Positions 5,028-59,815 of a DNA stretch of 64,000 nt are shown here, one piece after another. The translations under genes and the position numbers were made by a program. Positions within the stretch are counted from its first letter, which is position 1, and every line of letters begins with the position of its first letter. The notes beneath the pieces are model-generated. The model was not told the DNA's origin, did no database searches, and saw only the letters and a program-made list of their open reading frames with translations. Source of the stretch: a virus; IMG/VR virus record IMGVR_UViG_3300047476_000597, positions 1 through 64,000 of that record; one strand, written 5' to 3'.

Positions 5028-5385
5028 CAGTTTTCTTTTTTAATTTTTCTAGTAGCATTTTATTTATTTCCATTATCTGATCATAATCTTTTCTTACATA
5101 CCTTTCTCCTTGTTGAAAACCCATACTAAACACGCTTTCTACTATCATTTTTATCATTGGCTCGTCTGATCCATTACCATGATTATTAAACTCCCACGAC
5201 TCTTCATTGATTTTTTCTTTGAGTGGTATACAGTCTGAACCTTTCATTATATCAGCTCCTTTGTATTTATTATACCACTTTACTTTTTGTTTAATGTCAT
5301 GAGTTTTTTTGATGAGTTTTACTACATCATCTATTACTTTACTTACATCTTGCAGTTTGTATTTGTCTTTTTCTTTTATCTTCAT
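5014..5385 (-). CDS. Hypothetical charged protein, 123 aa
   Basis: Family not recognised. Basic helical ends (K-rich at residues 1-45 and 100-118) flank a central segment with F-S-M-G-F-Q-Q-G-E-R, a helix pattern common in small phage proteins. It is coupled to its neighbours. Confidence 0.75.
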   Translation of the reverse strand: MKIKEKDKYKLQDVSKVIDDVVKLIKKTHDIKQKVKWYNKYKGADIMKGSDCIPLKEKINEESWEFNNHGNGSDEPMIKMIVESVFSMGFQQGERYVRKDYDQIMEINKMLLEKLKKKTDDNN

Positions 5386-5729
5386 ACCGACAATATTTTT
5401 ATCTGTCCTTTTAACCCTGCTATTTCTTTTTGTAGTTCTTTTATTCTGTGCTCTAGTAACCCTCTTCCTCTGTTGCTCTCTTCGTATTTTTTTCTGCTTA
5501 TGTAGTGCTCTGTTATTTCTTGTTTCTTTTTACTTATACTCACCAGTGTTATTCTTACTGGTGGTTCATTCCTCATAGCCTCTAGCTCTTTTCTGAGTTC
5601 TTTATTGTCTAGTTCCTGTTGTAGCAGCTGTTGATTAGTTTTCTTCTTTTCTTCCCGGCAGTTATGCAGTAACACTTTCAGCTCACTATTATCTTCCGAT
5701 AACCTCTTTATCTGTTCATCTATTGTCAT
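5382..5729 (-). CDS. Coiled-coil protein, 115 aa
   Basis: Residues 1-50 and 85-113 show heptad spacing of L and I with K/E/Q between, giving two coiled-coil blocks around a short basic linker. No enzymatic motif is visible and function is unknown. Confidence 0.75.
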   Translation of the reverse strand: MTIDEQIKRLSEDNSELKVLLHNCREEKKKTNQQLLQQELDNKELRKELEAMRNEPPVRITLVSISKKKQEITEHYISRKKYEESNRGRGLLEHRIKELQKEIAGLKGQIKILSV

Positions 5730-9982: not shown

Positions 9983-12900
9983 TTATGCTGCTACAGGTTC
10001 TTCTTTTGGTTTCTGTAGACTCTGCTTGATCTGTTCTGATAATCTCTTCACTTCATCTTTCAGCTGTTGTAGCTCTTCTTCTCTTTCAAACGGTTTATGT
10101 TCCAATCTGTTGAGGTGACTAATCTCTAGCTCCAGTTTCTCTTGCTCTTTCTGATATGTGTTATACAACAGTCCCTCACATTTATCAATAGCTAATAACA
10201 GATTACGTGCAGCTAGTTTACTATTATCCATTAATACTGAACCATGATTATGATGGTATTTTATAGTACCTTCTGGATGTTGGGCATACACCTTATTATG
10301 ACTCAACATATTAGTACCCTGAGCAGCTGCATACCTATAGTCGTCTGTTATACTACTGCCAGCTTCTACTCTTTCTATCCATACATCAAAACCGTATATC
10401 TCACCTATCTTTTGTCTATATGTCCCTACAGCTGGTCGCCAGTTCCTGAATAGATCTATTAAGACCTCACCCTGTATTTGGCTAACATCTTTCAGTTCTA
10501 CATCTTCTTTTTCCTCGTCTTCTTCTACCTTAGCTACCTTCATCTTCAGACTACGTAACAGTTTTTTTTCTTGTTTTTCTATCTGTATACGTAGTTCGGC
10601 ACCATTTCTCTGATTGATAAGATCTACTGCATCATAGAGTAACAGTTTGTTTATTCTACCACCAGTCTCCGGATCTCTCTCTAGTACACTCTGGTACAGC
10701 TCAACATCTCTCGTCAGTTCTTTCACCAGCTGATCTACTACTACCTTACGGTCTGTTTTAGCTGCTAACATGTGTTTATTGTTGTGTTGCTCTTTGTAAT
10801 GAACGTTGCGAAGGTTCTCCAACAGTGCTACCTTCTTATCAGCCTTAGCTTTTTCCAATAGACTATTATCACCACTCAACACTGCTATATACTCTGCAAA
10901 ATTCATACCCGATGACTCATCTATACTACCCTCATCTATACTACGAGTCTGTAGCTCATTGTTCTTCATCTGTGATATGAATGTCTGCTTGTTCTTTAAC
11001 AGAGTAAACTTGTACGTATCTAGAGAACGTTCTACTGCATACACAAACACATACACCTTGTTATCTTGGGCCTGTTTAGCTAACCAGTTACCTGGTCTAA
11101 CACCTCTACCGTTCCTCTGTGTTAGCTGTGAGGGTTTCCATGGTATATCAAGATGATGCATAGCTACTACTCTTTGTTGAACATTGAGACCGGTACCTGC
11201 TTTATCTGTACTACCTAACAACACTCTAACCTCACCACTGTTAACTTTTTTGAATAGCTCATGTTTTTTCTTATCTGTCTGGTAGTCGTGTATGAACACT
11301 ATCTCTTCTCTTTTCAGCCCAAACTCATCTACGAGTTTATCACGCATAGTATCATACACATTAAACTTCTTAACAGTAACAATCTCTATGCTATTAAAAG
11401 ATTCAACCTCTACCTTATCACTATTAGGAGTACCAACATCACAGAATATTATCTGAGTACCTTTTTGAGCCATGAATCGGTAATAGAACTCGGCAACCTT
11501 AGTAGCACAAACATGTAGCTTACTATCAGGGTGATCATCGTATCTGAACTGGTCTATGAGTCGCATATCGGTACTCATCTTTTTAGCACAGTTGGTAGCT
11601 ATCAACATCTTAGCACTCATCTCTGATTCTGACAGTGGTTCTCTGAATATCCATTCTCCATCACCTGTTTCAGCAAACTTTATTAGCCTGTGTATGTAGT
11701 CTTGTTGTGCTGGAGTAGGAGTTAGTGGTACCAGCTGCTCTACCATCTCTGGTTCATCTATACCGGCCATCTTCTTGGTTTTGTAATCAGCTATCTCATT
11801 GTAGAACAGAGCTAGCTCTGGTACCTTGATAAAATGCCTGAACCTATCTTTTGGTATTATCTGATTAGTAACAGAAAACTCGTAATCAGTAGTCTTCTTA
11901 GCATATACAGCTGCCCATGAGTCAAAATTGGTTATATTCTGTCTAGCTAGTGCTCTTGGTCTCAGATACTTGAACAACAGATACATCTCTGTCAAACTGT
12001 TACTAATAGGAGTACCTGATAAGAATGTAGCTTGTATATCAGCATCTCTTAGTTTTTGCAATTCTCGAATTGCGAACAACATATTCAGAGCTTTCTGGCT
12101 ACCTTCTTGATTACCTAGACCAGCTACTCTGTCGTGCCTCGTGGAATATGTAAGATTTTTATATGCGTGCGCCTCATCAACTAACAAATGGTCTATACCC
12201 ATCTCACGGAATGTAATGTCTTCATCCTTCACCTTACCTATCTTGTCCATAGCTGTTTTCAGCTTAACCGCTAGAGTTTTCTTTCTGTTCTCTAGTCCTT
12301 TAGACATCTTCTTACTAATAGCAAAACCACTGTTTCTAGCTTGGTTAAGATCTTTCTCTAGATCCTCTAGTTCTTCTGACAGTACCTCTTTCTGTATCTC
12401 TAACGACTGCTGTATCTTACCAAACTGGTCATGGGATAATATAATGCAGTCCCAGTCGTTATTCTTGATCTCATGGAATAATCTCTTTCTATTACTCGGT
12501 TCAAAATCCTTCTCATCAGGTGCCAATATTCTAGCACTAGGGTATGCTGTTCTGTATGTACTAGCTACTTCTGCTACATTAGCTTTCAGACAGAGTATAG
12601 CTGGTTTGTTTCTGAGACCTAATCTCTTCATCTCATAGGATGCTATTATGGCTAGTAACGTCTTACCTAGGCCCACCTCATGGTCTATTATACCACCTTG
12701 ATTCTGTATTAGTCGCCATATTGCATTCTTCTGAGTAGCATATAGAGTGATAGGAGTTTTATCTTTACCCAGCTTACTAAGATCTAGGCCAGGGAATGTC
12801 TGATGACTGCCATCGAACTGACGTAACACAAAACAGTTATAGAGACTGTTGTATCTTTCTGCTATCCGGTTCTTGTTAGTATCATCCATATTCCACAACC

Positions 12901-13768
12901 ACTCTTGCCATTTTTTACGCATACTATCTATCTTATCAGCTGCCAGCTGTATAGCATCATTATCTTTTAGAGTACTATCACCACTAGTATACGTATAGAT
13001 AGGAGTAGTATTCTCCATAGCATGTTTCATGAGCTCATGGCCATAGGTAGTTGTCCTACCTAGAGAACGTACTACATACTCAGAATAAGATACAGCGTTA
13101 CCCCAGTGACCAAAACGGAAATCTATCTGATATTCATCTACTGATGGAAAATACTCTAATATAACATCACTAGCATTAAAAAACCACGCCATAAACGCTT
13201 TATAGTATTCCATTGGCACCCATCGCTCACCTAGTTGTATATCTAGTAGTTCAAAAGGTACTGGTTCTGGTTGGTTTTCACGAATAGCAGTTAGTGACCT
13301 AGCTACCTGTTTATCTTCTGGTCTCTCATTGTGTACACGTATAGCTGTCTGTAGTTTCTCATATACGTTACCTGATAACCAGGCATCAGCTGTTACCCAT
13401 TTATTAGTAGAGGGATCTACAAAAACAAGATCTCCCAGCTCCAGTATTACATCTTCTTCTTCCTTTCCTGTTATTTCTGCTATCTGTCCTATACTCACTC
13501 TACCTATCTTACCAAGAACATATACAAGAGCTTCACTACATACTGTTGTAGTGAAGACATCTTCTATGTGTTTAGTACTCTTATATATAACATCAGCTGG
13601 CTCATATTCTGAGTGTATACGTTTTTCTAATGAGCTACATATTAATAATCCATGAGCATCTTTGTTAATTAGATTCCGGTTCCTGCTCTTATTGAGCATA
13701 CCAAAAGAGTTAACAAAATACTCATAAGCCTCTCGTAGTTTTTGTCTTGCTATTTCTGTTTTTGTCAT
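9983..13768 (-). CDS. Large SNF2/DarB-like superfamily 2 helicase, 1261 aa
   Basis: ATP-driven DNA translocase. Motif I is D-H-E-V-G-L-G-K-T (about residue 365), motif II D-E-A-H (about 530), motif III L-S-G-T-P-I-S-N-S (about 578), and motifs V/VI T-D-K-A-G-T-G-L-N-V followed by Q-R-N-G-R-G-V-R-P-G-N (about 850-890). The C-terminus is charged and helical. The V-G-L-G-K-T and R-G-R-x-x-R-P-G-N style matches the helicase half of phage P1 DarB-like proteins. The adenine methyltransferase at 14559-16565 would be the other half. The ATG at 13768 was chosen because it overlaps the upstream stop (TAATG). A role in protecting or remodelling phage DNA is inferred. Confidence 0.9.
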   Translation of the reverse strand: MTKTEIARQKLREAYEYFVNSFGMLNKSRNRNLINKDAHGLLICSSLEKRIHSEYEPADVIYKSTKHIEDVFTTTVCSEALVYVLGKIGRVSIGQIAEITGKEEEDVILELGDLVFVDPSTNKWVTADAWLSGNVYEKLQTAIRVHNERPEDKQVARSLTAIRENQPEPVPFELLDIQLGERWVPMEYYKAFMAWFFNASDVILEYFPSVDEYQIDFRFGHWGNAVSYSEYVVRSLGRTTTYGHELMKHAMENTTPIYTYTSGDSTLKDNDAIQLAADKIDSMRKKWQEWLWNMDDTNKNRIAERYNSLYNCFVLRQFDGSHQTFPGLDLSKLGKDKTPITLYATQKNAIWRLIQNQGGIIDHEVGLGKTLLAIIASYEMKRLGLRNKPAILCLKANVAEVASTYRTAYPSARILAPDEKDFEPSNRKRLFHEIKNNDWDCIILSHDQFGKIQQSLEIQKEVLSEELEDLEKDLNQARNSGFAISKKMSKGLENRKKTLAVKLKTAMDKIGKVKDEDITFREMGIDHLLVDEAHAYKNLTYSTRHDRVAGLGNQEGSQKALNMLFAIRELQKLRDADIQATFLSGTPISNSLTEMYLLFKYLRPRALARQNITNFDSWAAVYAKKTTDYEFSVTNQIIPKDRFRHFIKVPELALFYNEIADYKTKKMAGIDEPEMVEQLVPLTPTPAQQDYIHRLIKFAETGDGEWIFREPLSESEMSAKMLIATNCAKKMSTDMRLIDQFRYDDHPDSKLHVCATKVAEFYYRFMAQKGTQIIFCDVGTPNSDKVEVESFNSIEIVTVKKFNVYDTMRDKLVDEFGLKREEIVFIHDYQTDKKKHELFKKVNSGEVRVLLGSTDKAGTGLNVQQRVVAMHHLDIPWKPSQLTQRNGRGVRPGNWLAKQAQDNKVYVFVYAVERSLDTYKFTLLKNKQTFISQMKNNELQTRSIDEGSIDESSGMNFAEYIAVLSGDNSLLEKAKADKKVALLENLRNVHYKEQHNNKHMLAAKTDRKVVVDQLVKELTRDVELYQSVLERDPETGGRINKLLLYDAVDLINQRNGAELRIQIEKQEKKLLRSLKMKVAKVEEDEEKEDVELKDVSQIQGEVLIDLFRNWRPAVGTYRQKIGEIYGFDVWIERVEAGSSITDDYRYAAAQGTNMLSHNKVYAQHPEGTIKYHHNHGSVLMDNSKLAARNLLLAIDKCEGLLYNTYQKEQEKLELEISHLNRLEHKPFEREEELQQLKDEVKRLSEQIKQSLQKPKEEPVAA

Positions 13769-14055
13769 TATTTTGTTTTTATTGGTACGTATACTGTATC
13801 TACTCTTTGTTCCCACTGTTGTTGTATACCTCTTTCATATCCTCTTTGTTCTATGTTTTTTTCTCTAGCACCCCCCATTAACAAAAACAAGGACACAAAA
13901 AGAAGAGTAGGCATAGTACCTATTGAACTTAGTAACAGTGCATTTATTCTTTTTATATGTTCTCTTTTGGTGTCCCACAGTCTACCTAGTGAGATTAGGG
14001 TTATCATATTTCCTATTACACATAATAACCCCATTATTATCATTCTTACATCCAT
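13768..14055 (-). CDS. Small membrane protein, 95 aa, two TM segments
   Basis: Hydrophobic stretches at residues about 5-23 and 38-60 are separated by a basic loop (K-R-E-H-I-K-R), with a charged C-terminal tail of about 30 residues. Function unknown. It lies between the methylase and helicase genes, coupled to the helicase by a TAATG overlap. Confidence 0.75.
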   Translation of the reverse strand: MDVRMIIMGLLCVIGNMITLISLGRLWDTKREHIKRINALLLSSIGTMPTLLFVSLFLLMGGAREKNIEQRGYERGIQQQWEQRVDTVYVPIKTK

Positions 14056-14285
14056 TACTTTGCTTTTTTAATCATTGTTATAGCAGTCATGCTTTTCATA
14101 TTGAGAGTAGAATGTTCGTCCTTTTCACATACAGCTAACCCACCTTCATAAGACTCGTGTACTACTATTTCATCTATTGTTCTTTTGTACTCACAGTTTT
14201 CATACACATACAGCTCATCTCCTACTGAGAATATCTCACCGTCTGATAGCCGTTGAACGCTTAGTATTTTATAGTCTTTATTCAT
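14055..14285 (-). CDS. Hypothetical beta-rich protein, 76 aa
   Basis: The sequence L-S-D-G-E-I-F-S-V-G-D-E-L-Y-V is the pattern of a small beta-barrel or cupin-like fold seen in many phage hypotheticals. No enzyme motif. Coupled to the membrane-protein gene by TAATG. Confidence 0.75.
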   Translation of the reverse strand: MNKDYKILSVQRLSDGEIFSVGDELYVYENCEYKRTIDEIVVHESYEGGLAVCEKDEHSTLNMKSMTAITMIKKAK

Positions 14286-14295
14286 TTTTTTGCTT

Positions 14296-14562
14296 TTAGT
14301 CTATTAGTCTCCAATAAGATGCACCATGTTCATCACACAGCTGTCTGATCTCTGTAAGAATGTTCTGTATTATTGTGCCTCTATCTGTATCGTGGTCTGG
14401 TTCACATATCCATATACTGTACAGGTCTTCCTCTTGTCTACTAGTATCTGTGTATGTATCTAGACCACGTACACTGTTTGTTAGTCTCCACAGTACATCT
14501 TTGTCTATGCTACTCTTTAGTACTGATACTATCTTTACTATATCTTCATCTATTTGTATCAT
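14296..14562 (-). CDS. Hypothetical protein, 88 aa
   Basis: Helical acidic protein with a central D-H-D-T-D-R segment. It overlaps the methyltransferase stop by four bases. No family recognised. Confidence 0.75.
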   Translation of the reverse strand: MIQIDEDIVKIVSVLKSSIDKDVLWRLTNSVRGLDTYTDTSRQEEDLYSIWICEPDHDTDRGTIIQNILTEIRQLCDEHGASYWRLID

Positions 14563-16565
14563 TGTTCTTCTTTTTGTAGTTCATAATAATAATCTCTAAT
14601 ATTTGCATATGCCTCTAGTATCCGCTGTTCTCTACCTTCTTTAATATCTGTTACTAGTTCTGCAACTGTCGGCTTACCTTGATCGTCTGTAGCTGTTATT
14701 ATATACAGCTGTGTCTTTTCTTCAAACAGGTTCTGTTGATTACCAGTTGTTACAGATATTATGGTACCTATCTTATACTCTAGAGCAGGATTATTACACA
14801 ACAGCTGCAGGGATTCTCCTGTCAGGGTACTGGTGGTATTTTCTGTTATAACACTTTGATTGTCAGCTGGTTGTAGGATTTCCTTGTCGCATTTATCTAC
14901 TATATTTGCGACAGTTAAACCAGCTTGACTGAATGTTACCTCGTCTTCTACCCATCTACTACTAGTTATTAGCTTTTCTGGTATTCCCACTAGCTGTTGC
15001 ATTTGTTCTAATAGAGTATCTTCTTTCTCATCTGTATAAACAGAACCTTCTACAGGCATTTTGTATGAATGACCAGTGTCTGACTTGTCAAAACCTGTTT
15101 CTTTTAGTTTCTCACTCCACGAATCTCCTTTTGGATAATAGCTAGGATCACTCATAACATTCTCATCGTAGCAGTTACTGCAAAACAACTCACTACCAAA
15201 CATTCCTACTCCACAGCTAATACATGTGCCTGTAATATCTTCAGATTTTTCAGTACTAACAGCTGTCTCTTCTATCTTAGGGATTGTAGCTACTATGATG
15301 TGGGCTTTTATCCAAGGGTCTACTATGTCTTCAGTTGTATCCCATGGAGCTGGTTCGTCTATTATATCACTCTCACCAGAGGTATCTAACCATTTCTTAC
15401 TCAGACCATAGCGTTGATTAAAATCCCTACGCAATATATCAGCAAACGGCTCCTTTATCTCATCTATAGGACCATCCCACCATGTTTCTACAGCTGGTTT
15501 ACCATATTGATTTTTGCCTGGTTTTACTGATGTAGCTACTGTTATATTCTTATCTGGGTTATCTGTCTTGTGTATGCTATTTATATAGCTATTTATTGCT
15601 ACTTTTATTCCTTGTATATCTTGTACACTACTCTCACACAACAGCTGCTCTTCTTCTGACATATCTGCCTCTGTCTTATCGAATCTTCTACGTACTACAA
15701 GAAAATGGCTAGGTGCCTCAGTATTAGCAGACTCTTTCATCAGATTATCCGGCATCACTGTAAGAGAGATAAAATCGCAGTTACTGAATAAATACTTTCT
15801 AGCTGTTCTATTAGTAGGAGTATCTAGAAATGCATTAGTTACCAGATATGCTAACAGACCACCATGGTTGAGTTTACTAATACCTTTGGCAAAAAAATAG
15901 TTATGTACCTTGCCTGTGAGATTCTTGTCTGCTATTGTTGGATCAAACACTGGGAATGAACCATATGGTGGATTAGTAGCTACAAGATCATACTGACCAT
16001 CTTCACTCTTATCAGATTCTTCAAAACCTTTATTGTGCACTGTATAACGACTCTTAGCTGGTAGTGTACTCATGACACATTCTAACACCTTGCTAGTCAG
16101 CATATCCTTCTCATACATAGTAACCTTCTGTAGATTCTCTATATTCTGAATAGCTGACAGAGCAAAAACACCACCACCAGCTGCAGGGTCGTATACTGTT
16201 TTTATATCAGCATATTCTTGTACTATCTCCATGAATGTATCAACCACTACAGCTGGTGTGTAATATGCATCTAGTACTGCTGCTTTTATTGATGCTACTA
16301 CTTCTTTGTACGCTTTTTCACTCAGTTTATCCTGTAACAGATCATGCAGCTGTTGTATTACTGGTCGTAGTTGTTTATCTCCTTCTGCTACTGTTATCCA
16401 CTCTTGATCGTTGTATGGATTGTACAACAGTGCTTTTACAAACCCCCAACCTTTAAAAGATAACATAGTTTCTACTTCCTCTTCAGAAAGAGTCAAACCT
16501 TCGTGCCATTTAAAAACTGCTCTTATTGCTTCTATATTATTTTGTAGTGCTTGTTTCTGATTCAT
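14559..16565 (-). CDS. N6-adenine DNA methyltransferase, DarB-like half
   Basis: 668 aa. The N-terminus (N-N-I-E-A-I-R-A-V-F, then K-G-W-G) is the lead-in seen in large phage methylase/helicase proteins. The SAM-binding motif I is Y-D-P-A-A-G-G-G-V-F (about residue 120) and the catalytic motif IV is N-P-P-Y-G-S-F (about 190), which marks an N6-adenine enzyme. A zinc ribbon, C-x2-C and C-x2-C, follows near residues 450-466. No helicase motifs are present; those lie in the separate gene two positions downstream. It may modify phage DNA to escape host restriction. The first 29 bases overlap the homing endonuclease gene. Confidence 0.9.
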   Translation of the reverse strand: MNQKQALQNNIEAIRAVFKWHEGLTLSEEEVETMLSFKGWGFVKALLYNPYNDQEWITVAEGDKQLRPVIQQLHDLLQDKLSEKAYKEVVASIKAAVLDAYYTPAVVVDTFMEIVQEYADIKTVYDPAAGGGVFALSAIQNIENLQKVTMYEKDMLTSKVLECVMSTLPAKSRYTVHNKGFEESDKSEDGQYDLVATNPPYGSFPVFDPTIADKNLTGKVHNYFFAKGISKLNHGGLLAYLVTNAFLDTPTNRTARKYLFSNCDFISLTVMPDNLMKESANTEAPSHFLVVRRRFDKTEADMSEEEQLLCESSVQDIQGIKVAINSYINSIHKTDNPDKNITVATSVKPGKNQYGKPAVETWWDGPIDEIKEPFADILRRDFNQRYGLSKKWLDTSGESDIIDEPAPWDTTEDIVDPWIKAHIIVATIPKIEETAVSTEKSEDITGTCISCGVGMFGSELFCSNCYDENVMSDPSYYPKGDSWSEKLKETGFDKSDTGHSYKMPVEGSVYTDEKEDTLLEQMQQLVGIPEKLITSSRWVEDEVTFSQAGLTVANIVDKCDKEILQPADNQSVITENTTSTLTGESLQLLCNNPALEYKIGTIISVTTGNQQNLFEEKTQLYIITATDDQGKPTVAELVTDIKEGREQRILEAYANIRDYYYELQKEEQ

Positions 16566-33763: not shown

Positions 33764-34027
33764 CTACTGTTTTATCTTGAATATTACCTTCTCTCCACCT
33801 AGTATTATACGATCTACTACCCACTCAGTACTAGGTATTTTACTACCTACTGATATATACGGACCACCACTAGGATCTATAGCTGTAGGATTCTCTATGT
33901 GTCCATTGATTACTTCTCCTCCTGTTATTCCCATGTAGTGAAGAGTACCTGTCATCTCTACTGTGTCTGGTTCTATTTGTGTGAATAGGATAATATCACC
34001 GTCTCTATTTTTGTACTCTGTTTTCAT
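33764..34027 (-). CDS. Hypothetical beta-rich protein, 87 aa
   Basis: Repeated beta-strand-like segments (D-I-I-L-F-T-Q-I, V-V-D-R-I-I-L-G-G) with glycine turns. It shares a one-base junction with the Nampt-like gene upstream, so it is part of the same operon. Function unknown. Confidence 0.75.
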   Translation of the reverse strand: MKTEYKNRDGDIILFTQIEPDTVEMTGTLHYMGITGGEVINGHIENPTAIDPSGGPYISVGSKIPSTEWVVDRIILGGEKVIFKIKQ

Positions 34028-35529
34028 TATTTTATTGAGTTTTTTATTCTGTTTCTTATTTCTTCTAGTGTTGTTTCTGTTATTACACCATCTTTTAGTA
34101 ATGTTTTTAGTTCACAGTTGTTGACTTCTTTCCATGATACCCGGTCTATTAACATAAAACCACCTATTGGATCTTTATAAACAGCTATCAGTCCTTTTGC
34201 TGATTTTTTAGAGCCACTATCTGTTATCGGGTCTTTGTATATTTCCCTTGGTTGACCAGCTACCTCGCAATATGTGGCTTTTATTGCGCAACCTTGACTA
34301 TCTCTAGTAGCATATCCTAGAGAGTATGAACCAACACCAAACACAACATTAGTAGATGCAAACCCTTTACTTTTGAGTCTTTTACATATTTCCTCTGCTC
34401 TGTCTAGTGTAATAGAATCCCCATATATACAGCCTATGTGAGAATCTAGTACTTTATACCCTTGTTCATTAACTGTACCACCAAAAACATCCCACAGTAG
34501 TTCTACAACACCTTTTTCTTTAGGTAACATTTGTACTTCATTCCAGTTATCTCCTTTATACTCTGAGTGATTAGATACTCTTAAACGTTCTCCGCATATA
34601 ATATCAACAGGATCACCGCTGTCAGGCCGTATTACTATTTTACCATTTCTATTCAGTATTTCATCTTTCAACTGGCAAAGATAGTCAGTACAAACTTTCC
34701 AAAGATCAAAACTATCACTAACAATAGATAGTATACCAGTAGGAAACTGTTTCATTAGTCTTCTGAAACCTTCTATTTCACTTTCTTTTCCATAAGCTGT
34801 CATTACTGCATGTTCACTAGCCGGTACACTAACACCAGCTGAGTATGGTTCATTGTAATAGTACCTAGCAGCTGCAAGAGTAGGTACGGTATCTGTACCA
34901 AAAGAAGAGGTTAAAAACCCAAGACCTGAACTAATAGCAGACTCTGGATGTTGCATACCCCTAAAAGAAAAATCGTGTAGTTGGTAATCTACAAACCACA
35001 TATTGTTACTATCCGTTTCTTTAGCTTCTTTTACTAGTAGTTTTTTGTAGGCATAAACTAAAGAGGCACTATGAAGAGGTTTCCATAATAGACTACTAAT
35101 CAGAGTTTCTAAAAAATTAGTCAACCAAAAAAACTCTGGTAGGGTATTGTGTACTGTTACTATTGGTATTTTTTCTTGCACTACACTACCTTCTGCTAAT
35201 GCCTTTATCTCTATAGGAAGATAGCCTAGGTCATGTAATGCTTCAAAATGACTAACATCATACTCAGAACCAAGATAAGCACTGAGATATTGTCTGGCTT
35301 CTTGACATACTAGATCCTTTGGTTTACTAAAAAACTCTTTGTTATACAAATCTACTATGTATTTTATAGTATACTGAACACCAAAAACCACAATAGCTTT
35401 AGCTTTTTCTGGCATAAAACCAGTGCTTCTAGGAGTAAAATTAGAAAACACTAGTTCTGTATTTTCTGGGTACATAAGATGATGAGATGTTTTATAACCA
35501 TCTGTCATCAATAATGGGTTGTTATTCAT
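34027..35529 (-). CDS. Nicotinamide phosphoribosyltransferase-like (Nampt/Namat-like)
   Basis: 500 aa, full length for Nampt. Core landmarks: F-S-N-F-T-P-R-S near the start; H-D-F-S-F-R-G-M (about 190); G-T-D-T-V-P-T-L (about 215); the catalytic-His segment S-V-P-A-S-E-H-A-V-M-T-A (about 236-247); I-V-S-D-S-F-D; and R-P-D-S-G-D-P (about 301). In the phage NARP1 route a Nampt relative (Namat) joins ADP-ribose pyrophosphate and nicotinamide to give NAD+. Its coupled partner is the Prs-like gene. Nampt versus Namat specificity cannot be told by eye. Confidence 0.92.
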   Translation of the reverse strand: MNNNPLLMTDGYKTSHHLMYPENTELVFSNFTPRSTGFMPEKAKAIVVFGVQYTIKYIVDLYNKEFFSKPKDLVCQEARQYLSAYLGSEYDVSHFEALHDLGYLPIEIKALAEGSVVQEKIPIVTVHNTLPEFFWLTNFLETLISSLLWKPLHSASLVYAYKKLLVKEAKETDSNNMWFVDYQLHDFSFRGMQHPESAISSGLGFLTSSFGTDTVPTLAAARYYYNEPYSAGVSVPASEHAVMTAYGKESEIEGFRRLMKQFPTGILSIVSDSFDLWKVCTDYLCQLKDEILNRNGKIVIRPDSGDPVDIICGERLRVSNHSEYKGDNWNEVQMLPKEKGVVELLWDVFGGTVNEQGYKVLDSHIGCIYGDSITLDRAEEICKRLKSKGFASTNVVFGVGSYSLGYATRDSQGCAIKATYCEVAGQPREIYKDPITDSGSKKSAKGLIAVYKDPIGGFMLIDRVSWKEVNNCELKTLLKDGVITETTLEEIRNRIKNSIK

Positions 35530-35539
35530 GTTTTTATAT

Positions 35540-35974
35540 TTAAAACTCTACAGTTTGTTCATTTATATTTTTTCTTTTGCTTCTTACTGAGTATGCAGCA
35601 AACTCCAGAATCTCAAGAGCCTCTTCTAGACCAGCTCTATCATCTACGAATATATTAGCGTATATTTTATTCTGATTACCATAAGGAAGATCTATAGGAT
35701 TATTATTGATAGTATCTATTAACAGGCCTTTTTCTTCACAAAACTGCATAATCTCAGGATGCCTTTCTTCTTTACAAGCAGTGAATACTACTATATAGGC
35801 ACCTACTTCCCTGGCTAGTTTTATTTTTTCTATAGTTTCATCACACTGTGCTTGTGTTTGTAATCTCCAAGAGCTTATAGTATCATCATAGTCCACAGCT
35901 ATAATAATCTTACCATGCATCATCCATTCATCTACTAGACGTAAAACGTATTTATTTTCTTTTAGGTTTCTCAT
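35540..35974 (-). CDS. HAD-superfamily phosphatase-like protein, 144 aa
   Basis: The HAD catalytic motif is I-A-V-D-Y-D-D-T-I-S (residues about 24-33). V-V-F-T-A-C-K-E (about 68) supplies motif II and I-F-V-D-D-R-A (about 118) motif III/IV. It lies between the Prs-like and Nampt-like genes with an ATGA overlap, so it is probably part of the same nucleotide pathway. The substrate is unknown. Confidence 0.85.
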   Translation of the reverse strand: MRNLKENKYVLRLVDEWMMHGKIIIAVDYDDTISSWRLQTQAQCDETIEKIKLAREVGAYIVVFTACKEERHPEIMQFCEEKGLLIDTINNNPIDLPYGNQNKIYANIFVDDRAGLEEALEILEFAAYSVRSKRKNINEQTVEF

Positions 35975-36795
35975 ATTACTTTATATTGTTTTACTATACT
36001 ATTATCAATGTCTGAGTAGCTGTTAGTGCAGTGTACAGTAGATATATACTCTTTTATAGTATTAAAACCACTGCTGAATATACCATGAGTAACGGCTAAC
36101 ACTATCTCTGGGCAATCTAGCTGTGATAGTTTTTTTGCTATTTCTATGAATGTTCTACCACCATCACATATATCATCTATAATAAGGGCTTTTTTGCCCT
36201 TCATAGACACTAGGTTGCCTACAGAGGTAGTTGTAATATTACCATGTACATCTCTTGTTTTAGAGCATACAATGGGTATTTTATCTATGTGCAGCTGTTT
36301 TAATAGTGAGTATATCTTTTTACTAGCCCCCTCATCTGGGCACACTATCTCATAGTCAGACAGCTGGTCTATTACATGGGCTATAAAAACAGCGTTAGAC
36401 TCTACTACAAGATTGTTTATACAAGCATCTGTAACAGCTTCATTATGAGGATCTAATACAGATACATAAGAGTAGTTCTGACTGTTTATAATAGGAGCTA
36501 TTATATCTTTTAGATAAGATGTTCCTCCCTTTTTAAACTGTCTATCACTCCTTCCACCTAGTAGATAAGGAATAAATACTCCTATATCTTTACACCCTAT
36601 TCTTTTTAGTGCAGCTGTAATACATAACAGTATCTCAATATCTTGAAAAGAATTTATTCTGTGTTGTATTTCTATTTTATCATCTTTTTCTATTTTAATA
36701 GGATCAACCCAAGCATCTTGTTGACTATCAGGAAACCATGTTATAAACACAGTGTCATTGTATATGTTAACACTCTTTCTTTGTTGCATTCTCAT
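35971..36795 (-). CDS. Ribose-phosphate pyrophosphokinase-like (Prs/Adps-like)
   Basis: 274 aa, shorter than cellular PRPP synthase (about 315). Visible parts: I-P-Y-L-L-G-G-R-S-D-R (about 90), V-L-D-P-H-N-E-A (about 125), C-P-D-E-G-A-S, the flexible-loop region S-K-T-R-D-V-H-G, and the PRPP loop A-L-I-I-D-D-I-C-D-G-G-R-T (about 210-222). In NARP1 an enzyme of this type (Adps) adds pyrophosphate to ADP-ribose. The pairing with the Nampt-like gene makes that role more likely than ordinary PRPP synthesis. Confidence 0.88.
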   Translation of the reverse strand: MRMQQRKSVNIYNDTVFITWFPDSQQDAWVDPIKIEKDDKIEIQHRINSFQDIEILLCITAALKRIGCKDIGVFIPYLLGGRSDRQFKKGGTSYLKDIIAPIINSQNYSYVSVLDPHNEAVTDACINNLVVESNAVFIAHVIDQLSDYEIVCPDEGASKKIYSLLKQLHIDKIPIVCSKTRDVHGNITTTSVGNLVSMKGKKALIIDDICDGGRTFIEIAKKLSQLDCPEIVLAVTHGIFSSGFNTIKEYISTVHCTNSYSDIDNSIVKQYKVI

Positions 36796-49036: not shown

Positions 49037-49075
49037 ATAAAAAAGAGAGTAGTGATCGAACAACACTGCTCTCTT
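49037..49075 (-). terminator. Intrinsic terminator after the tmRNA
   Basis: Minus-strand stem AAGAGAG-CAGTG / CACTA-CTCTCTT (arms 49069-49075 and 49043-49049), followed by TTTTTTA. It lies about 68 bases after the tmRNA 3' end and closes that transcription unit. Confidence 0.85.
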
Positions 49076-49142
49076 AGTTTGTCGGCATACGTTTGTCAGG
49101 AGACAACACTCATGTATACCTGTATAGCCATGGCAGCTATTG

Positions 49143-49519
49143 TGGAACCGACGGGAGTCGAACCCGTGTCCAAACGATTTTCCTCTCAAAAAAGTTACGA
49201 CTATGACTTGTTTTTACTCTGCTGTCTTCAGAGATGCTTGTGTAGCTGTTATGTTATTCGGACAACTGCTACTGTACTTTTCCTTCCCTGTGAGTTATAC
49301 ACTCAGGTATGTGTTTTGAATTAGGCTGCTACTGCAAACTCACCATACATTACTGGAGCATTTGCAAAAGCAAGATTAATTAGTCTTGCACCTTCTTCTT
49401 GACGAGCAACTTTTTTGTTGTTTGCATCTATTGTTTGAATCTATTTATTTAAAGGACTACATCCTTGTCCTTAGTCGCCTTTTCTACTATACTAGTCGCT
49501 GTCAAAACCAAACGGCCCC
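49143..49519 (-). ncRNA. ssrA: Phage-encoded tmRNA (transfer-messenger RNA)
   Basis: The 5' GGGGCCG (49513-49519) pairs with the 3' CGGTTCC (49144-49150), forming the 7-bp acceptor stem. The discriminator is A (49143) and CCA is not encoded. A perfect 5-bp T stem with TTCGACT loop lies at 49151-49167, and a shortened D-like arm GGTTTTGACAGCGACT follows the 5' strand. The tag frame begins at a probable GCA resume codon (49423-49425) and ends V-A-A then TAA (49321-49323): up to 34 residues, starting A-N-N-K-K-V and ending E-F-A-V-A-A. It rescues stalled ribosomes and tags their products. Confidence 0.93.
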
Positions 49520-49530
49520 ATATTGTTTTA

Positions 49531-49680
49531 CTAGTTTAATGAAAACAAAGATACGCTAATTCCTGTAGCTGTCACAATATATACCATTTCATACAGCTGA
49601 TCATCTTCTGAGAATGGTATCAGGTAGCTGTCTATGTTGTATATGCACCAGATATTAAGGTATCTTTGTTTAGTTGTCAT
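49531..49680 (-). CDS. Small protein overlapping the tmRNA promoter, 49 aa
   Basis: ATG at 49680 has a normal leader and reads 49 codons to TAG. The protein is mixed strand/helix with two acidic residues in a row (S-E-D-D-Q). The tmRNA -7 promoter element lies inside its last codons. Unknown function. Confidence 0.65.
   Translation of the reverse strand: MTTKQRYLNIWCIYNIDSYLIPFSEDDQLYEMVYIVTATGISVSLFSLN
49546..49553 (-). promoter_or_regulatory. tmRNA promoter -7 element, TATCTTTG
   Basis: TATCTTTG is placed about 27 bases upstream of the mature tmRNA 5' end, with a TTG about 21 bases further upstream, close to the known Bacteroidota -33/-7 spacing. It sits within the 3' end of the small gene at 49531. 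Confidence 0.75.
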
Positions 49681-58946: not shown

Positions 58947-59063
58947 TTTTTATAAAAAATTTTCTACTACTCCCAGTCACAGCTATCTTTATGTTTTTAT
59001 TTTTAAAAAAAATTTCAAAATATCCGATAGTTGTAGTACCCTTGTTTTATCCTATACTATTCC

Positions 59064-59071
59064 TACCTTTG
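59064..59071 (+). promoter_or_regulatory. Promoter -7 element, TACCTTTG
   Basis: TACCTTTG lies 46 bases upstream of the ATG at 59117. Its presence shows that the long hydrophobic extension 58991-59116 is untranslated leader and not a signal peptide. Confidence 0.65.
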
Positions 59072-59116
59072 TTATTCACTAGCATCTACCGGTGTAAAGA
59101 CGAACCGGATTATACA

Positions 59117-59815
59117 ATGACTAATACACAGAGTTTTGCTGCAAGAGAGTTAGACATACTCTCTAAGACATGGGATAAGAATAACCCAGATGAGGAACCA
59201 GTTATCCTAGAGTTTACTCCTGAGATACTAGCACTATGTGAGAGGTTTGGTAATAGTGGACAGAGTGGAGGATCTGCACCTTATGTAGCTGGTGCTATAT
59301 GTAATGCACTGAAGAAGCTGCTGTTACAAGAACCTATTGCACCTATAACAGGAGTAGAGGATGAGTGGTTCAGTGTCTATGGTATGAACCCTAAAAAACC
59401 AGAAGGTTATCAAAACAGTCGCTGTAGTTCATTGTTCAAGGATGCTAATATACAAGACGGTAATCCTTATTATCTAGATGCTATAGTGTGGAAAGGCGAT
59501 ACAGAAGGAGAGTCTGGTACTGATTGGGAAACATTCTCCGGTACTGTAGCTGGTATAACTAGTAGGCAGTTCATTAAAGGGTTTCCATTCATTCCTAAAA
59601 CATTCTACATAGATGTTACTAGAGAATATCTACCAGCTGACCATACAGAGGAACCATTCTATGAGTTTGATTACTATGATCAAAAGATATACGAGGCAAC
59701 TGGTGTTAGAGAGTGGGTAAAAGAAAAATACCGATATAAGATAAAGGACCCTAAGCAGCTAGAAAAGGTTTGGAAATACTATAAACAACCAAAACAGCAA
59801 CATGACAACATCTGA
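59117..59815 (+). CDS. Conserved phage protein of unknown function, 232 aa
   Basis: Recognisable phage-wide pattern: I-L-A-L-C-E-R-F-G-N-S-G-Q-S-G-G-S-A-P (about 38-57), W-F-S-V-Y-G, Y-Q-N-S-R-C-S-S-L-F-K, Y-Y-L-D-A-I-V-W, then F-P-F-I-P-K-T-F-Y-I-D-V (about 185) and acidic E-F-D-Y-Y-D. The family occurs in many tailed phages without an assigned role. It overlaps the next gene by 14 bases. Confidence 0.85.
   Translation: MTNTQSFAARELDILSKTWDKNNPDEEPVILEFTPEILALCERFGNSGQSGGSAPYVAGAICNALKKLLLQEPIAPITGVEDEWFSVYGMNPKKPEGYQNSRCSSLFKDANIQDGNPYYLDAIVWKGDTEGESGTDWETFSGTVAGITSRQFIKGFPFIPKTFYIDVTREYLPADHTEEPFYEFDYYDQKIYEATGVREWVKEKYRYKIKDPKQLEKVWKYYKQPKQQHDNI

What the first reader, a model, noticed from the sequence alone, without database searches (positions are those of the whole stretch)
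49143..49519. Phage-encoded tmRNA with its own promoter and terminator
The tRNA-like ends, perfect T arm (49151-49167), D-like arm, tag frame ending V-A-A-TAA, promoter -7 element (49546-49553) and terminator (49037-49075) make a complete ssrA unit inside a phage early region. Phage tmRNAs are known but uncommon (established knowledge). It may replace or compete with host rescue when the host's own system is shut off.
Basis: partly seen in the sequence, partly recalled or inferred. Interest (0 to 1): 0.85.

Follow-up and report, generated by a model that had tools for sequence, protein, structure and literature searches.

The report
Phage tmRNA with conserved long tag
This virus of bacteria carries its own complete copy of the RNA (tmRNA) that frees stuck ribosomes, and instead of the host's usual 9-10 residue destruction label it encodes a 34-residue label whose core is kept, as a peptide, in about 20 other viral tmRNAs and was found in no bacterial genome searched, which suggests the label does more than mark proteins for destruction.

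Summary
The tmRNA is real. Window 49140-49519 (-) scores 88.7 bits against Rfam RF00023 (E 4e-33) and is ARAGORN's only hit in the window. The 7-bp acceptor stem has the alanine identity pair G3·U70, and the T arm and pseudoknot PK1 form. The terminator is supported. The "promoter" is not: the TATCTTTG motif lies in the end of a conserved 49-aa ORF and is no commoner than chance. Phage tmRNAs are known (about 2.3% of phage genomes), so this alone is ordinary.

The unexpected part is the tag. By homology it starts at GCA 49425 and reads ANNKKVARQEEGARLINLAFANAPVMYGEFAVAA, 34 codons against 9-10 in Bacteroidota hosts. Its core, (A/S)RQ(E/N)(E/I)GA(R/S)IINM(A/C)FAN, recurs in 20 further viral tmRNAs. 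In tmRNAs collected without using the tag, the reading frame shows purifying selection (pN/pS 0.32; 0 of 400 shuffles as low). It was absent from 396 Bacteroidota genomes, a GTDB scan and named phages. None of the 19 phage records tested encodes SmpB, so host SmpB is presumably borrowed. I read it as a working phage tmRNA adding a conserved, probably helical module before an ordinary AVAA degron. What the module binds is unknown.

The parts
49140..49519 (-). one-piece tmRNA (ssrA) gene; mature RNA probably 49143-49519 plus CCA added after transcription
   Evidence: RF00023 88.7 bits, E 4.1e-33; ARAGORN
49513..49519 (-). acceptor stem, 5' strand GGGGCCG
   Evidence: pairs 7/7 with 49144-49150; G3.U70 present; positions 4-7 covary across the family
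49144..49150 (-). acceptor stem, 3' strand CGGUUCC, discriminator A at 49143
49151..49167 (-). T arm ACGGG-UUCGACU-CCCGU
   Evidence: 5/5 pairs
49437..49472 (-). pseudoknot PK1 upstream of the tag (S1 AAGGAC/GUCCUU, S2 GGAU/AUUC)
   Evidence: same architecture with changed sequences in L045, L041, L044 and L052
49324..49425 (-). tag reading frame, 34 codons ANNKKVARQEEGARLINLAFANAPVMYGEFAVAA; resume codon GCA 49423-49425
   Evidence: RF00023 alignment places AAUAGAUGCAAAC on the consensus resume site; start conserved in relatives
49360..49407 (-). conserved tag core ARQEEGARLINLAFAN (codons 7-22)
   Evidence: 20 further viral tmRNAs, pN/pS 0.32 in frame on the tag-independent set
49321..49323 (-). 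tag stop codon TAA
49043..49075 (-). intrinsic terminator hairpin followed by a T run
   Evidence: -12.0 kcal/mol; conserved and fully paired in L017, -17.1 kcal/mol
49546..49553 (-). TATCTTTG, Bacteroidota -7-like motif (not shown to be a promoter)
   Evidence: lies inside the ORF 49531-49680
49531..49680 (-). small ORF (49 aa) directly upstream, conserved in L017
48247..49002 (-). 251-aa protein of unknown function downstream of the tmRNA; homologues in several tmRNA-bearing relatives
   Evidence: no PHROG

Best explanation
A functional one-piece phage tmRNA. Inferred chain: it is transcribed, trimmed and given CCA by host enzymes, charged with alanine through G3.U70, bound by host SmpB, and enters ribosomes stalled on broken mRNA. 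The ribosome then resumes at GCA 49425 and adds Ala plus a 34-residue tag before stopping at TAA. The tag's last residues (AVAA) are an ordinary Clp-type degron. Its first ~22 residues are a phage-specific module kept by selection on the peptide. I think the most likely role of the module is to be recognised as a short helix by a protein, either an adaptor or protease partner that steers phage-tagged chains, or a host target that the tag inactivates. Shown: the RNA gene, its pairings, the tag and its selection, and the absence of detectable phage SmpB. Inferred: charging, SmpB use, degradation and the module's binding role.
For: RF00023 and ARAGORN hits. Acceptor stems across the family use several sequences and still pair, with G3.U70 in 18 of 19 as scored and 19 of 19 if L039 is read one base earlier. 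PK1 present. Tag core in 20 further viral tmRNAs. With tmRNAs gathered by downstream RNA sequence or by a neighbouring gene, not by the tag, pN/pS is 0.32 in frame against 1.64 and 1.29 in the other two frames, 0 of 400 column shuffles as low. Tag profile: 5 of 5 tag phages hit, 0 of 4 other tmRNA phages, 0 of 396 Bacteroidota genomes; GTDB scan negative; named phages negative. Host tags in Bacteroidota are 9-10 residues in 61 of 65 genes. No SmpB in this genome or in 18 other phage records. AlphaFold2 gives helix 4-21 with pLDDT about 83 in residues 11-20 and a loose C-terminus; conservation is periodic near 100 degrees, p 0.026.
Against: No expression, charging or tagging data. The helix model is of modest confidence (mean pLDDT 68) and the periodicity weak. 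No binding partner found, and no tag-like motif elsewhere in the window's proteins. Hosts are not known directly. The RNA patterns used for the tag-independent set were themselves derived from tag-family tmRNAs.
Confidence: 0.68

Rival explanations
1. An ordinary phage tmRNA: the long tag is only an unstructured extension or spacer that helps proteases grip, and the core is alike because these genes spread recently among phages.
For: Phage tmRNAs are common enough (2.3% of phage genomes, PMC9004378). The modules look mosaic: window and L038 share the 5' half, window and L017 share the tag and 3' half, so recent exchange does occur.
Against: Synonymous sites differ at about 0.48 per site while the peptide is kept. 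Residues Q9, G12, I16, N17, F20, A21 are invariant in all aligned tags. A mere spacer would not hold its sequence.
Confidence: 0.2
2. The tag region is conserved for RNA structure or resumption of translation, not for its peptide.
For: A local hairpin GCAAGA/UCUUGC can form in the window tag.
Against: All 16 third codon positions of the core vary, pN/pS is low only in the tag frame, and the arms of the window hairpin are not kept in relatives.
Confidence: 0.05
3. A decoy: the phage RNA titrates host SmpB or ribosomes to block host trans-translation, as the tRNA-like-domain-only RNA of mycobacteriophage DS6A is thought to do.
For: The DS6A-type RNA strongly inhibits tmRNA (PMC4131195). No phage SmpB found.
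Against: A complete tag frame with degron and stop is under peptide-level selection, which a decoy would not need.
Confidence: 0.05
4. A remnant of host ssrA picked up by imprecise excision, or an attachment site, with no function.
For: ssrA is a common integration site (general knowledge); the 5' signature GGUUUUGACAGC equals that of a Bacteroidales tmRNA.
Against: Compensated acceptor stems, intact PK1, intact tag frame, and recurrence in phages of different lineages. The tag is unlike any host tag found.
Confidence: 0.02

Closest known systems
Bacterial one-piece tmRNA (Rfam RF00023), Bacteroidota type
   Same: Full-length covariance-model match, tRNA-like ends, G3.U70, PK1, resume site, degron-like tag end; 5' signature GGUUUUGACAGC as in a Bacteroidales tmRNA
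   Different: Host tags are 9-10 residues of the GENNYALAA type (61 of 65); this tag is 34 residues with another sequence
Other phage tmRNAs: Bacillus phage G, crAss-like cr10_1 and cr50_1, Chryseobacterium phage MA9V-3, OM43 phage Melnitz
   Same: tmRNA gene in a phage genome; MA9V-3 likewise has no detectable SmpB
   Different: Phage G: one-piece, tag AKLNITNNELQVA. cr10_1, cr50_1 and MA9V-3: permuted genes with tags of 13-17 residues. Melnitz: two-piece (PMC9004378). None of the named phage records has the core; cr10_1 and MA9V-3 also fail the tag profile
Mycobacteriophage DS6A RNA (tRNA-like domain only)
   Same: phage-borne tmRNA relative that would act through SmpB
   Different: has no tag frame (PMC4131195)
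Intron form of tmRNA (group I intron in the T loop)
   Same: family members L040 and L053 carry such an insertion (48 bits to RF00028 in L040)
   Different: the window gene has none

Membership tests
tmRNA (RF00023, one-piece) | covariance-model match above the curated cut-off over the full length | tested here: met
   88.7 bits against 47, positions 1-374
tmRNA (RF00023, one-piece) | tRNA-like domain: acceptor stem, T arm, alanine identity pair G3.U70 | tested here: met
   7/7 and 5/5 pairs, G3.U70, covariation in relatives
tmRNA (RF00023, one-piece) | pseudoknot PK1 before the tag | tested here: met
   window alone 3 of 60 shuffles as good, L045 and L044 0 of 60
tmRNA (RF00023, one-piece) | pseudoknots PK2-PK4 | tested here: inconclusive
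   only the weak central part of the RF00023 alignment; not tested by covariation
tmRNA (RF00023, one-piece) | resume codon and short reading frame ending in a hydrophobic degron and stop | tested here: met
   GCA 49425, ends AVAA-TAA
tmRNA (RF00023, one-piece) | charged with alanine, binds SmpB, tags proteins | not testable with these tools
   needs experiment
self-contained phage tmRNA-SmpB system | phage smpB gene | tested here: not met
   none in the 133,627-base record; the same search finds 10 of 14 control genomes. The record may be incomplete
permuted (two-piece) tmRNA | circularly permuted gene | tested here: not met
   standard order; ARAGORN reports the unpermuted form
new sub-family: phage tmRNAs with the RQ..GA.IIN..FAN tag | tag matches the profile of the 20 aligned tags | tested here: met
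   G000:49324-49425, E 3.1e-16 (the window tag is itself one row of the profile)

The most novel reading that the evidence does not exclude
These phages have turned trans-translation into a delivery route: their tmRNA appends a conserved helical peptide module to every rescued chain, and the module binds a specific host or phage protein (an adaptor, protease or defence factor), so that broken-mRNA events during infection serve the phage in a way the host tag cannot.
Probability: 0.3. Interest if true: 0.85.

Novelty: new variant of a known kind. Interest (0 to 1): 0.6.

Why it matters
Why some phages carry tmRNA is an open question, usually answered with general remarks about ribosome rescue. 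A tag core held by peptide-level selection across phage lineages, and not found in bacteria, points to a specific job and can be tested by swapping or scrambling one short peptide. It also gives a sensitive marker (a 29-position profile) for finding these genes, whose tags ARAGORN often truncates or whose genes it misses.

Tried and rejected
Exact search for the window's 3' end in viral contigs: no hit. Nucleotide search of the tmRNA in named phages: mostly short T-arm matches, no full-length relative. Megablast of 24 kb of the window in named phages: nothing. Tag against PDB, Pfam, PHROGs and the window's own six frames: nothing meaningful. ClpX-type ATPase in this genome: none. ClpP-like hits occurred in three relatives; the one examined (L197) is best matched by head maturation proteases, so I do not count them as tag readers. 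The idea that pN/pS was low only because the tag was used to find the genes was tested by re-collecting with RNA-only patterns; the signal held. The exact tag string was found in no paper of the library. Two attempts to fetch mycobacteriophage Bxz1 failed.

Full report
ARAGORN finds a single RNA gene in the 64-kb window, a one-piece tmRNA at 49142-49519 on the minus strand, and Rfam's tmRNA model matches 49140-49519 over its full length with 88.7 bits, E 4.1e-33. The window is part of a 133,627-base IMG/VR virus record in which no tRNA and no SmpB was detected. The terminal CCA is not encoded, so host CCA addition must be assumed.

Relatives strengthen the RNA. In 19 family members with both ends held, the acceptor stem keeps its pairing through sequence changes at positions 4-7, and the third pair, the alanine identity element G3·U70, is present in 18 as scored. 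The one exception, L039, becomes G3·U70 if its 5' end is read one base earlier (direct reading); L045 pairs at only five of seven positions. PK1 forms before the tag with different sequences in window, L045, L041, L044 and L052. PK2-PK4 were not tested separately.

Transcription. The terminator hairpin folds at -12.0 kcal/mol and in relative L017 at -17.1, because the window's one C·A mismatch is U-A there. The claimed promoter is weaker: TATCTTTG at 49546-49553 is a Bacteroidota -7 motif, but TAnnTTTG is not enriched in the window (55 against 70.6 expected), and the motif lies within the last codons of a 49-aa ORF (49531-49680 -) conserved in L017, which could by itself explain its conservation.

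The tag. ARAGORN reports 28 codons beginning at GCU 49407. The Rfam alignment, however, places AAUAGAUGCAAACAAC on the consensus resume site, and relatives share the frame from there, so the resume codon is most likely GCA 49425 and the tag is ANNKKVARQEEGARLINLAFANAPVMYGEFAVAA. A relative found through the downstream gene (L017, the same contig as L042; 39% identical neighbour protein) has VNNEKVARQNEGARIINMCFANVEEAIAA. Peptide searches of viral contigs then gave 16 loci, and two searches with patterns from the RNA downstream of the tag, blind to the tag itself, gave 16 loci, all of which carry the tag (L189 read by eye as DHQAIGAKIINMAFAN). In all, 21 tmRNAs including the window were compared (two of them, L040 and L041, have nearly the same tag region). 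Q9, G12, I16, N17, F20 and A21 are invariant. Two members, window and L191, have a longer insertion between core and degron.

Selection. On 15 tags from the tag-independent set (window, L042, and those recovered by RNA patterns), pN/pS over codons 7-22 is 0.32 in the tag frame and 1.64 and 1.29 in the other two; none of 400 column shuffles is as low, shuffle mean 0.91. The tag-selected set gives 0.23. All 16 third codon positions of the core vary. So the peptide is what is conserved, not the RNA. The sequences are related, so these shuffles are a guide and not an exact probability.

Specificity. A profile of 20 tags finds all 5 tag-family records tested (each of which contributed a row) and none of 4 other phages with tmRNA, none of 396 Bacteroidota genomes and none in three genomes searched first, one of which is among the 396. 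A scan of 84,980 species genomes with the core pattern gave 63 chance stretches and no confirmed relative. tblastn in 50,697 named phage records gave nothing. In 65 Bacteroidota-dominated ssrA genes the predicted tag is 9-10 residues in 61; the commonest tag length in the tmRNA database is 10 residues (PMC11915505). The tag family crosses phage lineages: the window's DNA polymerase A is shared with L057's record (60%) but is absent or very distant in the other tag-family records held, several of which are fragments.

Host. Bacteroidota is inferred: the 5' signature GGUUUUGACAGC equals that of a Bacteroidales tmRNA, and two family members (L040, L053) carry a group I intron-like insertion between UUC and GAC of the T loop (for L040, direct reading), which looks like the loop position that PMC11915505 reports only in the class Bacteroidia.

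Mechanism. The simplest account is standard trans-translation with host AlaRS, host SmpB and host ribosomes, ending in a Clp-type degron (AVAA). The conserved module before it is what needs explaining. AlphaFold2 on the tag alignment gives one helix over residues 4-21 (pLDDT about 83 for residues 11-20, mean 68) and a loose end, and conservation has a helical period (p 0.026). Both are modest evidence for a conserved helix face, hence a binding site. No partner was found; a phage ClpX was sought only in this genome and ClpP hits in relatives look like head maturation proteases where examined.

What is known. Phage tmRNAs were reported in 402 of 18,146 phage genomes (PMC9004378), in mycobacteriophages and phage G (PMC4131195), and in huge phages (PMC7162821); phage G's tag is AKLNITNNELQVA, and crAss-like and Chryseobacterium phages have permuted genes with short tags. 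I found no report of a conserved long tag family, and no paper held contains the core string; subscription papers and the tmRNA database files were not searchable. I therefore rate the gene a known kind and the tag family a new variant.

Noticed in passing
window 34027-36795 (-): NAMPT-like protein (PF04095, E 7e-42) next to a phosphoribosyltransferase / PRPP-synthetase-like protein (PF00156): resembles NAD+ rebuilding pathways that phages use against NAD-depleting defences.
   Followed up: partly
window 58991-59815 (+): Protein matching Tad3, a type I Thoeris inhibitor (PF25185, E 3e-19); homologues 47-53% identical in two other tag-family loci, L191 and L192.
   Followed up: partly
L040 5221-5498 and L053 near 5280-5470: Nearly identical group I intron-like insertion of about 200 bases in the T loop (UUC^GAC) of two different phage tmRNAs; Rfam Intron_gpI 48 bits in L040 against a cut-off of 50.
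   Followed up: partly
L017 4524-4618: tRNA-like gene directly after the tmRNA with an odd anticodon loop (ARAGORN: 4-base anticodon gaga); its 3' flank is homologous to the 3' flank of the window's tmRNA.
   Followed up: partly
L038 5230-5276, L058 near 5265, L018 tmRNA: T loops without the usual UUCGA (e.g. GGCAGUG in L058), although the stem still pairs in L058.
   Followed up: no
window 49076-49139 (-): The 64-base trailer between tmRNA and terminator is strongly conserved in L017 and folds into hairpins; function unclear.
   Followed up: no
window versus L038 and L017: tmRNA modules look exchanged: the 5' half is shared with L038, the tag and 3' half with L017, whose tRNA-like domain differs.
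   Followed up: partly
window 9983-16565 (-): SNF2-type helicase (1277 aa) close to an N6 adenine methyltransferase (668 aa), with weak matches to DISARM/BREX-type helicases in PADLOC.
   Followed up: no
L018 (G005, 168 kb): tmRNA with tag VESEFALAA among many tRNAs in a phage sharing NAMPT with the window's phage.
   Followed up: no
L195 (NC_055889, cr53_1): T-arm-like match to the L041 tmRNA and a second short match to the window's tmRNA region about 100 bases away, in a stretch with no annotated RNA; ARAGORN finds nothing there. Possibly an unannotated permuted tmRNA.
   Followed up: no
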